From Baekduia alba (GTDB lineage Bacteria > Actinomycetota > Thermoleophilia > Solirubrobacterales > Solirubrobacteraceae), in assembly GCF_028416635.1 (NCBI RefSeq), contig NZ_CP114013.1, positions 1,488,001 through 1,552,000 on the forward strand: a stretch of DNA of 64,000 nt, read 5' to 3'. The notes beneath the pieces are model-generated. The model worked only from the letters and a program-made list of their open reading frames with translations, did no database searches and was not told where the DNA came from. Positions 33,117 to 56,461 of this stretch are shown here, in pieces. Made by a program: the position numbers and the translations under genes. Position 1 is the stretch's first letter, and each line of letters begins with the position of its first letter.

Positions 33117-33485
33117 GGGGACGACAGGCTTCGACGTGGTCGACCTCGTCTGGGTGGTCGCGAGCCGAGGTCCCGGAGGCCTCGTAAAACACCGGGAAAA
33201 CCATATGTGCGGACTCTCACGAGTACGCCCTCGCTGCTTAGTCTTTAAACAACTAAGCGAGTGAGGTTCCGCCCCCGGCCTGCCGGCCGCCGGGGCTTCG
33301 GAATCAGACATGCCGGCTCACCCGGGGAGGTCCGCTTCCGCCGAACCGGGGACATCTTCAGGGAGCTGGTCCACCGGAACCCCGTCGGCGAGGCGACCGG
33401 AGGACGAGATCAGAGCGCCGACTACGCTCGTAGAAGCCATCCATACGCGATTGCGGACGTGGGTTCAATTCCCACCGTCTCCACC
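33117..33485 (+). ncRNA. ssrA: Transfer-messenger RNA (tmRNA)
   Basis: The tRNA-like acceptor stem pairs GGGGACG (33117-33123) with CGTCTCC (33476-33482), followed by the discriminator A and CC; the final A of CCA is not encoded. The 5' GACAGGCTTCGACG and the 3' T-arm GTGGGTTCAATTCCCAC are diagnostic. The tag frame runs GCG 33209 to TAG 33239-33241 and reads ADSHEYALAA, ending in the ALAA degron seen by Clp proteases. Pseudoknot stems surround it, including ACTAAGCGAG after the stop. tmRNA rescues stalled ribosomes with SmpB. Confidence 0.96.
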
Positions 33486-54139: not shown

Positions 54140-55528
54140 ATGCAGCGATCTGCCCAGGGGTACTGGCTCGCCGATGCAGGCCCGGTCGTCGCCCGGCCGG
54201 TGCTGGCTGAGCGCGTGAGCGCCGACGTCGTCGTGATCGGAGGTGGCTACCTCGGGATGTGGACGGCGTGGCACCTGCGGGCGGCGGGCGCGACGGTCGC
54301 GCTGCTGGAGGCCGACGAGTGCGGCCACGGGCCGAGCGGGCGCAACGGCGGGTTCCTGAACGGGATGTGGGAGCGCGTCGGGGAGCTGGAGGAGCTGTTC
54401 GGGCGCGAGGCCGCGCTGGCGGTCGCGCGCGCGGCGGCGGAGTCCATCGACCTCATCGACGCGTGGTGCGCGGCGCAGGGCGTCGACGCGCACCTCGTGC
54501 GCGCGCCGATGTTGGAGGTGTCGGCCGCGCCGGGCCAGGACGGCGTCTGGGGCGACGCGGTCGCGGCGGCGCGCGCGATGGGTCGCGGCGACGAGCTGGT
54601 GGAGGTCGACGCCGCGGGCGCGCGAGCCGTGTGCGACTCGCCGCTGTTCCGCGGCGGCGTGCTGTGGCAGGGCGCCGCGACGGTGCACCCGGCGCGGCTG
54701 GCGCTGGGCCTGCGCGGCGCGCTGATCGCCGCGGGCGTGGAGGTCTACGAGCACTCGCGCGTGGTGGGCGTCGAGGACGGCGCCGACGGCGTGGTCGTCC
54801 GCGTGGACGGCGGGGGAGCGGTGCGCGCCGGGGCCGGCGTCCTGGCGATCAACCACGCGAGCGCCGGCGTCAAGCCGCTGCGCGGCGCGCTGAGCGTGGC
54901 GTCGTCGCACGTGGTCGCGACCGAGCCGGTGCCCGACCAGCTGGAGGCGCTGGGCTGGACCGGCGGCGAGGGGATCGGCGACTGCCGGACCATGTTGCAC
55001 TACTTCCGCACGACCCGGGACGGGCGCGTCGTGTTCGGCTGGGGCGGCGGGCGGATGGGGTTCGGCGCCCGTCGCCGCGCCGCGCTGGACGTCGACCCCG
55101 GCGTCCAGGACGCGACCGCGCGCGACCTGTACGACATGCTCCCGCTGCTGCGCGGCGCCCGGATCGAGCACGCGTGGGGCGGGCCGATCGACGTCTCGCC
55201 GGTGCACCTGCCGTGGTTCGGGACGCTCAAGTCCTTGTCCTACGGCTTCGGCTTCACCGGCAACGGCGTGGGCCCGACGGAGCTGGGCGGGCGGATCCTG
55301 GCCGACCTCGCGCGCGGCGCGTCCTCGGAGCTGACGGCGCTGCCGATCGTCGGCGGGCTGCCGCCGCGGAGCTTCCCGCCGGAGCCGGCGCGCTTCGCGG
55401 GCGGGTCGCTGATCCGGGCGGCGCTCGTGCGGCGAGACGATGCGGAGGGGCGGGGCGAGCGGGTCGATCCGGTGACGGGGTTCGTGGCGGGGCTGCCGCG
55501 GAGGTTGGGGCTGCATCTGCCGCGGTGA
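54140..55528 (+). CDS. FAD-dependent oxidoreductase, DAO family
   Basis: The 462-residue protein has the dinucleotide fold DVVVIGGGYLGMWTAWHLRAAGATVALLE (residues 29-57) and GHGPSGRNGGFLNGMW, the pattern of D-amino-acid/glycine/sarcosine oxidase-like proteins and of YurR-like enzymes. The C-terminal FGFTGNGVGPTELGGRILADL completes the FAD site. It oxidises an amine or amino acid; the substrate is unknown. TACCTT lies eight bases before the ATG, with no Shine-Dalgarno. It is followed by a 490-base gap filled by an inverted-repeat element. Confidence 0.88.
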   Translation: MQRSAQGYWLADAGPVVARPVLAERVSADVVVIGGGYLGMWTAWHLRAAGATVALLEADECGHGPSGRNGGFLNGMWERVGELEELFGREAALAVARAAAESIDLIDAWCAAQGVDAHLVRAPMLEVSAAPGQDGVWGDAVAAARAMGRGDELVEVDAAGARAVCDSPLFRGGVLWQGAATVHPARLALGLRGALIAAGVEVYEHSRVVGVEDGADGVVVRVDGGGAVRAGAGVLAINHASAGVKPLRGALSVASSHVVATEPVPDQLEALGWTGGEGIGDCRTMLHYFRTTRDGRVVFGWGGGRMGFGARRRAALDVDPGVQDATARDLYDMLPLLRGARIEHAWGGPIDVSPVHLPWFGTLKSLSYGFGFTGNGVGPTELGGRILADLARGASSELTALPIVGGLPPRSFPPEPARFAGGSLIRAALVRRDDAEGRGERVDPVTGFVAGLPRRLGLHLPR

Positions 55529-55545
55529 GAACGTTTGCGGTGCGG

Positions 55546-56001
55546 GCGTTGGTTGGTCTTCAGTGCGGCGCGCTTGGGGTGCTGCGGCGCGTGGTTCGTC
55601 CCTCATCAAGGGCGTGCGAGTGTGGTGGCGGCGCCACCCTGGCTGGTGTGGCTCGTCCTCGCGGCAGCGCCGGGGGCGGAGTTCGGGGCCGAATCTCCGG
55701 GTCAAGCGCCATCGATCGCGTGAAGTCCGCGTGTATCGCGGACTTGACGCGATCGAGCGCGGTTCGGGGCCGAATCGCCGCCCTCCGGAGATCCGGGTCG
55801 CTTGAACGTCATAGAGACGTTGGAAGTGACCCAGACCGCCAGCGGGCTGCCCTTTCGGCCCCGAACCGCCCGCCCTGGAGCACGACCACGACGAGCCACA
55901 CCAGCCAGGGTGGCGCCGCCCCAACGCCTTCACGCCCTTGATGAGGAACGCACCACGCTCCGCAGCACCACCAACGCCCCGCACTGGTGACCAGCCAACG
56001 C
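55546..56001. repeat. Composite inverted-repeat element filling the intergenic gap
   Basis: The 149-bp left arm (55546-55694) and 148-bp right arm (55854-56001) are diverged inverted copies. Both contain GGCGGCGCCACCCTGGCTGG followed by TGTGGCTCGTC, both contain CTCATCAAGGGCGTG, and both end near TTCGGGGCCGAA in the same orientation relative to the centre. Between them are two more palindromes: a 20-bp stem with one mismatch and loop TGTAT (55712-55756), and GGGTC...GACCC (55795-55832). A third TTCGGGGCCGAAT lies at 55762-55774. No transposase is present. Translations of both arms look alike only because the DNA does. It may be a non-autonomous mobile element or a structured RNA. Confidence 0.85.
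55712..55756. repeat. Long hairpin inside the composite element
   Basis: TCGATCGCGTGAAGTCCGCG (55712-55731) and its complement (55737-55756) pair with one mismatch across a 5-base loop. It is the most stable local structure in the gap. Confidence 0.85.
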
Positions 56002-56017
56002 GCCACACACGCCCCGC

Positions 56018-56461
56018 TCACCCCACCCGCCACGACATCAACAAGTGCGGCCCGATCCCCTCCAACTCGAACTCGTCCCCCTCGACCGCGAACCCCTCGC
56101 GCTCGTAGAACCCCCGAACCGGCGATCGCGCGTTGCACCACACCCGAACCCCGCCCGCCGCTCGCGCCCGGCCCAGGCACGCCGACAGCAGCGCGGCGCC
56201 CGCGCCGACGCCGCGCCCGCCCTCCGGGTCCGTCGCCATCCCGCGGATCCGCCAGTCCCCGACCGCCGGCGCCCGCGGATGCGGCTCGGGCGTGATCGAG
56301 GCGATGCCGATGACCCGGCCGCCGTCGTCGTAGGCCGCGAAGTGCGCCGCGCCCGGCGCGTCGTCGCCGTCGTAGACCTGGTCGGCCATCGTCTGGTGCG
56401 GGCGCAGCACCTTCTGGCGCAGCGGCCGGACGACCTCCGCCGCGACGCGCTCGACCCTCAC
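56018..56461 (-). CDS. GNAT-family N-acetyltransferase
   Basis: The 147-residue protein has the GNAT core: AAHFAAYDDGGRVIGIASITPEP, WRIRGMATDPEGGRGVGAGAALLSACLGRARAAG (acetyl-CoA loop RGVGAG) and VRVWCNARSPVRGFYEREGFAVEGDEFELEGIGPH, typical of ElaA/YjcF-like acetyltransferases. The substrate is unknown. GTG 56461 lies one base after the stop of the EAL protein gene, so the two form an operon. Its end lies 16 bases from the inverted-repeat element. Confidence 0.87.
   Translation of the reverse strand: MRVERVAAEVVRPLRQKVLRPHQTMADQVYDGDDAPGAAHFAAYDDGGRVIGIASITPEPHPRAPAVGDWRIRGMATDPEGGRGVGAGAALLSACLGRARAAGGVRVWCNARSPVRGFYEREGFAVEGDEFELEGIGPHLLMSWRVG

What the first reader, a model, noticed from the sequence alone, without database searches (positions are those of the whole stretch)
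55546..56001. Composite inverted-repeat element with two inner hairpins and no transposase
Two 148-149 bp arms in inverted orientation, still clearly alike, enclose a 20-bp hairpin with a 5-base loop and a second imperfect palindrome. TTCGGGGCCGAA occurs three times. The element fills a gap between two genes. The conserved blocks are patchy, as in a structured RNA or old non-autonomous mobile element. I know no named family with this layout.
Basis: seen in the sequence. Interest (0 to 1): 0.72.

Follow-up and report, generated by a model that had tools for sequence, protein, structure and literature searches.

The report
Scattered repeats tied to nuclease genes
The odd inverted repeat is one of about twenty related copies scattered in this bacterium's chromosome, mostly between genes that run towards each other, and its inner hairpin is the same palindrome that brackets a gene for a homing-endonuclease-like protein in the same genome, which suggests a kind of mobile repeat not described in the papers searched.

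Summary
Window 55544-56003 holds two inward-facing ~150-nt units around two palindromes, between convergent genes. It is one of at least 22 places in the host chromosome; 17 of 21 judged lie between convergent genes (15 by automatic gene calls alone), against 14 of 88 other junctions. At one junction the composite is present in the host, absent in three congeners whose stop codons overlap or lie 1 or 8 bp apart, and replaced by a different composite in a fourth.

The inner palindrome is the key. It matches palindromes flanking AbiEi_4-DUF559 genes of the same genome: 27 of 32 composites found without using the palindrome match an own-genome gene end strongly, none a foreign one. Many such genes carry like palindromes at both ends, and in two further species that palindrome is dispersed. 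The protein is predicted as an AbiEi part fused to a Vsr/I-Bth0305I-type nuclease domain. The host's one Y1 transposase gene is not linked to it.

Best reading: a non-autonomous element of a REP-like system whose partner is this nuclease. The association is shown; mobilisation is inferred.

The parts
55544..55695 (+). Left unit (type A), ~150 nt, reads inward from the stop codon of the FAD oxidoreductase gene
55852..56003 (-). Right unit (type B), ~150 nt, reads inward from the stop codon of the GNAT gene
55704..55764 (.). Palindrome P1 (core GATCGCGTGAAGTCCGCG/5 nt/CGCGGACTTGACGCGATC); closely similar palindromes flank the AbiEi_4-DUF559 gene at G000:C1 ~790.7-791.7 kb (L072)
55790..55837 (.). 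Palindrome P2 (imperfect). Not found in the other G000 stretches fetched; relatives in G004 (88 and 81% identity) and in a G003 composite (77%)
55682..55693 (+). TTCGGGGCCGAA motif closing unit A
55763..55774 (+). TTCGGGGCCGAA motif, extra copy in the core
55854..55865 (-). TTCGGGGCCGAA motif closing unit B
54140..55528 (+). Left flanking gene, FAD-dependent oxidoreductase (DAO)
56018..56461 (-). Right flanking gene, GNAT acetyltransferase, convergent

Best explanation
The element is one copy of a dispersed, non-autonomous repeat family of the form unit A - palindrome(s) - unit B that has spread into stop-to-stop junctions, mostly of convergent genes. Its palindrome is the cognate sequence of an AbiEi_4-DUF559 gene elsewhere in the same genome; that gene carries the palindrome at both ends. 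SHOWN: dispersal, preference for convergent junctions, presence/absence between species at one junction, palindromes matching nuclease genes of the same genome but not those of other species, like palindromes at both ends of many such genes, dispersed copies in two further genomes, predicted AbiEi plus EDxHD/Vsr-type fold. INFERRED: the AbiEi winged-helix part binds the palindrome, the nuclease part cuts or nicks it, and repair or strand transfer copies the palindrome with its surroundings to new places, so that gene and repeats form a REPtron-like pair; copies survive best where no promoter or reading frame is hit, hence the convergent junctions.
For: Copies. Context: 17 of 21 convergent (judged by hand from GC-frame gene calls, 15 by the automatic calls alone; both neighbours Pfam-supported in 9) against 14 of 88. 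Empty sites: UDPGP-CtaG junction empty in G004 (stops overlap), G006 (1 bp), G001 (8 bp), filled in G000. Link to the gene: exact P1 core 17 times in G000, 0 in five congeners, reversed-pattern control 0 in G000; the only two exact hits outside composites both flank one DUF559 gene. Composites found by their units, not by P, match an own-genome DUF559 gene end at score 21-38 in 27 of 32; foreign ends never exceed 17 in 39. General: long palindromes at 5' ends 12/79 and 3' ends 7/78 of relatives against 1/235 other gene ends; 5' and 3' ends of one gene alike in 9/77 against 0/77 random cross pairs at score >=16, 12 of 18 in the genus. Dispersal: 19 places in Conexibacter arvalis, 13 in G005, two of each flanking the gene. 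Protein: AbiEi_4 in 55 of 60, DUF559 in 54 of 60; I-Bth0305I Z 13.5, AbiEi Z 12.7; invariant E212, D239, E250, H257, D266.
Against: No binding, cutting or movement was observed. Most relatives (67 of 79 5' ends, 71 of 78 3' ends) lack a palindrome of score 14 or more. Five of 32 composites do not match a same-genome DUF559 end strongly (L061, L064, L069, L085, L086). In G006 the five composites printed carry a second palindrome for which no gene was found, and window P2 has no gene either. No target-site duplication. No unit was found near the DUF559 genes in the own-genome unit search, so who moves the units is open. In the genus, cross matches of 16 or more also occur between ends of different DUF559 genes (6 of 18 genes, best of 17 partners). 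P could be an autoregulatory operator that was merely captured. The middle of the model (64-202) also matches MenT-type nucleotidyltransferases (Z about 10).
Confidence: 0.6

Rival explanations
1. A classical MITE: the ~150-nt units are terminal inverted repeats moved by an unrelated transposase, and the palindromes are passengers that inserted into it.
For: Long inverted units; an A/B polarity in the full copies (read by eye); dispersed copies and empty sites. In C. arvalis the palindromes seem to stand without units (by eye), so the two modules can be separate.
Against: No target-site duplication in 13 copies tested; no gene with such ends was seen in the stretches read; the one Y1 transposase gene of G000 has no unit in its 5.3-kb stretch and no palindrome of score 12 or more within 900 bp. 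Units diverge between species while the palindromes follow the own-genome nuclease gene.
Confidence: 0.2
2. A host-maintained bidirectional terminator or 3'-UTR element for convergent genes.
For: Placement between convergent genes, strong hairpins, units read from a stop codon inward in the convergent copies.
Against: The same junction is empty in three congeners with at most 8 bp between stops; little covariation within units; no reason for the palindrome to follow a nuclease gene.
Confidence: 0.1
3. Dispersed operators or chromosome sites: the AbiEi part binds the palindromes to regulate or organise DNA (as BIMEs bind gyrase, recalled), and nuclease activity is lost or irrelevant.
For: AbiEi-like fold; a palindrome over the start codon fits autoregulation (6 of 23 5' palindromes have an in-frame start codon within 1.5 nt of the loop centre).
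Against: Invariant catalytic-type residues; palindromes at the 3' end too, like the 5' one; many dispersed copies lie at 3' ends, where operators are not expected.
Confidence: 0.15

Closest known systems
REP/REPIN repeats with RAYT (TnpA-REP) tyrosine transposases, 'REPtrons'
   Same: Dispersed intergenic palindromes; a cognate gene flanked by the same palindrome; composite arrangements (PMC3733652, passages; PMC8266576, abstract).
   Different: Partner gene is AbiEi_4-DUF559, not an HUH tyrosine transposase; no GTAG tag in 30 palindromes; here set within ~150-nt units.
TIRYT genes and TIRtrons; CGTC-tagged REPs that 'apparently lack a dedicated transposase' (PMC3733652)
   Same: Transposase genes flanked by palindromic or inverted repeats; orphan palindromes in some species (passages).
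   Different: Y1 genes in G004 and G005 stand near GGGGTCAGACCCC-type or similar palindromes, unlike P; CGTC stands at 7 of 30 P copies.
EDxHD homing endonucleases (I-Bth0305I) and Vsr
   Same: Predicted fold of residues 205-304 (Z 13.5 and 11), sequence match to 3r3p (E 9e-4), conserved acidic and His residues (their reading as EDxHD is mine).
   Different: Fused to AbiEi; no intron or intein seen; like palindromes at both gene ends and scattered in the genome.
AbiEi antitoxins (type IV toxin-antitoxin)
   Same: Residues 9-200, 6y8q Z 12.7; Pfam AbiEi_4; PADLOC AbiEi models.
   Different: A nuclease domain is attached at the C-terminus.
ERIC, BIME, MIRU, Correia/NEMIS and other short intergenic repeats (recalled)
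   Same: Hairpin-forming, intergenic, some near stop codons.
   Different: Composite with paired units and a core matched to an own-genome nuclease gene; no sequence comparison was made.

Membership tests
REP/RAYT (REPtron) | Dispersed extragenic palindromes in many copies | tested here: met
   22 places in G000, 19 in C. arvalis, 13 in G005; fewer than the >100 per genome quoted for REPs (abstract)
REP/RAYT (REPtron) | GTAG tag at one end of the palindrome | tested here: not met
   0 of 30 palindromes
REP/RAYT (REPtron) | Cognate Y1/HUH transposase flanked by the repeat | tested here: not met
   No Y1_Tnp match in C. arvalis or G001; the G000 Y1 gene has no unit in its 5.3-kb stretch and no palindrome of score >=12 within 900 bp; the flanked gene is AbiEi_4-DUF559
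MITE | Terminal inverted repeats | tested here: met
   148-nt arms, same layout in other copies
MITE | Target-site duplication | tested here: not met
   13 copies; shared flank words no longer than in shuffles except L058 and L066 (8 nt; 4 and 2 of 100 shuffles), and those words do not abut the ends
MITE | Autonomous partner with the same ends and a transposase | tested here: inconclusive
   No unit-bounded gene seen in the stretches read; the genome could not be scanned as a file
EDxHD homing endonuclease (the protein) | EDxHD/Vsr-like catalytic fold and residues | tested here: met
   the fold is predicted, the motif reading is mine
EDxHD homing endonuclease (the protein) | Cleaves a specific site and drives its own gene into it | not testable with these tools
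   needs biochemistry
Structured RNA family | Match to an Rfam family | tested here: not met
   only the tmRNA in the window at gathering score
Structured RNA family | Covariation of base pairs | tested here: inconclusive
   1 of 25 predicted pairs with a two-sided change in 31 closely related units; the palindromes of C. arvalis do show two-sided changes at 3 of 20 pairs, which a DNA palindrome would too

The most novel reading that the evidence does not exclude
A transposase-free way of spreading repeats: homing-endonuclease-type AbiEi-EDxHD genes bracketed by their own recognition palindrome copy that palindrome, bare or wrapped in larger composite elements, into stop-to-stop junctions of the genome, forming gene-specific repeat families in Thermoleophilia that parallel REPtrons but arose independently.
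Probability: 0.45. Interest if true: 0.9.

Novelty: new variant of a known kind. Interest (0 to 1): 0.8.

Why it matters
REP-like palindromes are frequent bacterial repeats, and the survey read here in passages sorts most of them into two large superfamilies, one of which 'apparently lacks a dedicated transposase' (PMC3733652). A second, unrelated enzyme family tied to its own palindromes would show that repeat-plus-enzyme pairs arose more than once, would give DUF559/AbiEi_4 genes, today filed as unknown or as antitoxins, a testable substrate, and supplies a ready pair (one gene, one palindrome) from a deposited strain, Conexibacter arvalis DSM 23288, for binding and cleavage assays.

Tried and rejected
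Structured RNA: Rfam gave only the tmRNA and covariation was nearly absent in the units. Coding: small ORFs cross the element, but single-base indels between copies speak against a conserved frame. Target-site duplication: none. RAYT partner: rejected for P. TTCGGSSCCGAA pairs 5-40 nt apart as a separate repeat: no match in six genomes. Shared places between G000 and congener composites: no shared junction among 125 G000 flank proteins searched against 18 congener stretches; one sulfatase gene lies near a composite in both G000 (L065) and G006 (L077), but on opposite sides. A first pairing count for C. arvalis palindromes used a wrong register and is discarded for the corrected one. A Foldseek/VIA list cannot exclude other folds. 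Of the syntenic UDPGP-CtaG junctions I read out those of G000, G001, G004, G005 and G006; those of L238, L240 and L242 were fetched and not judged. The G001 FAD-GNAT junction lacks the composite but holds about 175 bp of other sequence, so it is not a clean empty site. Of 23 DUF559 genes listed, 21 were fetched, 20 scored and 18 (L099 left out of both; L108 and L110, cut by the stretch, left out).

Papers: PMC3733652, PMC12907096 and PMC3943268 seen as passages, PMC8266576 as abstract and outline; all others as search listings. That no paper describes palindromes at DUF559/AbiEi genes rests on the searches and 96 of an open-access library without bioRxiv.

Full report
What is there. The window element (55544-56003) consists of two inward-facing units of about 150 nt, each starting about 15 nt from the stop codon of a flanking gene and ending in TTCGGGGCCGAA, around a core with two palindromes. 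The flanking genes, a DAO-type oxidoreductase and a GNAT enzyme, converge.

It is a family. BLAST of the element against its own 5.86-Mb genome gave 72 matches (40 of 158 candidates scored); a profile of 31 units gave 37 unit matches at E <= 0.01 (150 of 14,847 candidates scored). Together I count 22 places (a hairpin-only place at 790.7 kb and a weak 47-bp match at 2.59 Mb left out). An nhmmer profile found 35 units in the window plus 20 loci. Read by eye, full copies pair one unit of type A with one of type B, so the composite has a polarity. The same layout with diverged sequence occurs in congeners G006, G003 and G004.

Where it sits. Of 21 places judged (window, L051-L069, L071; L070 left out as unclear), 17 lie between convergent genes and 4 do not or are unclear (L057, L059, L065, L071). 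By the automatic calls alone it is 15; for L056 and L064 I took a 115-aa ORF of good codon composition as the left gene. Pfam supports both neighbours in 9 of the 17. In the same loci 14 of 88 other junctions are convergent by the automatic calls, gaps over 600 bp dropped (binomial p 8e-11 for 17 of 21, which treats copies as independent). Convergent junctions without the element are mostly tiny: 10 of 14 have 44 bp or less between stops. The fit is not always tight: L052, L060 and L069 leave 200-320 bp on one side. Places are clustered: 9 of 22 in 250 kb, 0 of 5000 random placements.

It inserts. At the UDPGP-CtaG junction G000 has a composite (L058). In G004 the two stop codons overlap, in G006 they are 1 bp apart, in G001 8 bp, with both neighbours conserved. 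In G005 the same junction holds a different composite: other inverted flanks (63% over 414 columns) around a palindrome of its DUF559 gene L106 and one that by eye resembles that of L101. No target-site duplication was found (13 copies). No junction is shared between the G000 and the congener composites fetched, though one sulfatase gene lies near a composite in both G000 and G006.

The palindrome leads to a gene. The exact P1 core occurs 17 times in G000 and never in five congeners. Outside composites its only exact occurrences flank one gene, L072:3042-3998, encoding AbiEi_4 plus DUF559. That gene was first met through P1, so I looked for all PF04480 genes independently; the search lists 23 in six genomes, L072 among them. 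L091 in G000, L095 in G006 and L108 in G004 carry palindromes matching the cores of composites in those genomes. Scored over 39 composite cores against the ends of 20 of the 23 genes, the best match was 14 or more and from the same genome in 35. Seven G005 cores were found with P itself and are circular; of the 32 others, 27 match an own-genome end at 21 or more (8 of them L072, 8 L091, 10 L095, 1 L108), while no core of the 39 matches a foreign end above 17. L061 (17 own, 16 foreign), L064, L069, L085 and L086 do not count as matches. The second palindrome of the window (P2) has relatives in G004 and in a G003 composite, and none in the other G000 stretches fetched.

The gene-palindrome pairing reaches beyond the genus. 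Of 258 related places in named genomes the best 80 were fetched, 63 of them titled Conexibacter, Patulibacter, Solirubrobacter- or Thermoleophil-; several share a genome. Palindromes of score >= 14 stand at 12 of 79 start ends and 7 of 78 stop ends, against 1 of 235 other gene ends. The two ends of one gene resemble each other at score >= 16 in 9 of 77 genes and in 0 of 77 random cross pairs. In the genus 12 of 18 genes have such like ends; in two of these 12 (L091, L109) an end of another, probably paralogous, gene matches still better, and 6 of 18 genes have some cross match of 16 or more when all partners are tried. Six of 23 start-end palindromes have an in-frame start codon within 1.5 nt of the loop centre. 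In C. arvalis the palindrome of L183 occurs at 19 places, 17 away from the gene; in G005 that of L106 at 13 places, 11 away. In C. arvalis they look bare by eye: of nine read away from the gene, five lie between convergent genes, three between codirectional ones, one inside an ORF call; of seven read in G005, three are convergent. Pairing is kept in 196 of 220 cells over 11 C. arvalis copies, with two-sided changes at 3 of 20 positions.

The protein. Sixty relatives align with invariant E212, D239, E250, H257, D266. The predicted structure (mean pLDDT 93) matches AbiEi antitoxin 6y8q over residues 9-200 (Z 12.7, rmsd 4.0, 183 aligned) and the I-Bth0305I catalytic domain over 209-304 (Z 13.5, rmsd 2.0, 91 aligned), with Vsr at Z 11; the middle part (64-202) also matches MenT-type nucleotidyltransferases at Z about 10. 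Sequence profiles agree. A homing-endonuclease review describes I-Bth0305I as dimerising on a target of nearly 60 bp (PMC3943268, passage), about the length of P; that likeness is suggestive only.

Mechanism. Shown: dispersal, site preference, presence/absence at one junction, own-genome pairing of repeat and gene, predicted DNA-binding and nuclease folds. Inferred: the protein binds and cuts its palindrome and thereby spreads it. Why units of 150 nt travel with the palindrome in one genus and apparently not in C. arvalis is unknown, and whether the units are moved by the same enzyme is open.

Comparison. It works most like a REPtron, but fails two defining features: no GTAG tag (0 of 30) and no linked Y1 transposase. 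It fails the target-site duplication of a MITE. I therefore do not file it under either. I rate it a new variant of a known kind, the kind being dispersed palindromes with a cognate DNA enzyme; if the nuclease is shown to spread the palindromes it would be a separate class.

Noticed in passing
G000:C1 1.295-1.544 Mb (the window lies at 1.488-1.552 Mb): Nine of 22 composites lie within 250 kb; 0 of 5000 random placements reach this. Local hopping or a regional preference is possible.
   Followed up: partly
L075-L079 cores (G006): The five composites printed carry two palindromes; one matches DUF559 gene L095, the other (GTGCATTTGGG type) has no gene found.
   Followed up: partly
L058:2956-3018: A 21-bp direct repeat (copies at 2956 and 2998) around and after the UDPGP stop codon beside the composite; possibly a footprint of an earlier event.
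   Followed up: no
L256:2901-3002, L257:2936-2980, L258:1784-1835: GGGGTC(T/A)GACCCC-containing palindromes beside Y1 transposase genes in G005 and G004, which recalls the GGGGWSAS motif reported for TIRYT genes (PMC3733652).
   Followed up: no
L120 and L127, 3' ends of DUF559 genes: Two genomes share a similar stop-end palindrome (GTCGAGC...CCGGAACC around an ACACCTGAT loop), unlike the usual gene-specific ones.
   Followed up: no
window 33117-33485 (+): tmRNA gene, the only Rfam match in the window at gathering score.
   Followed up: no
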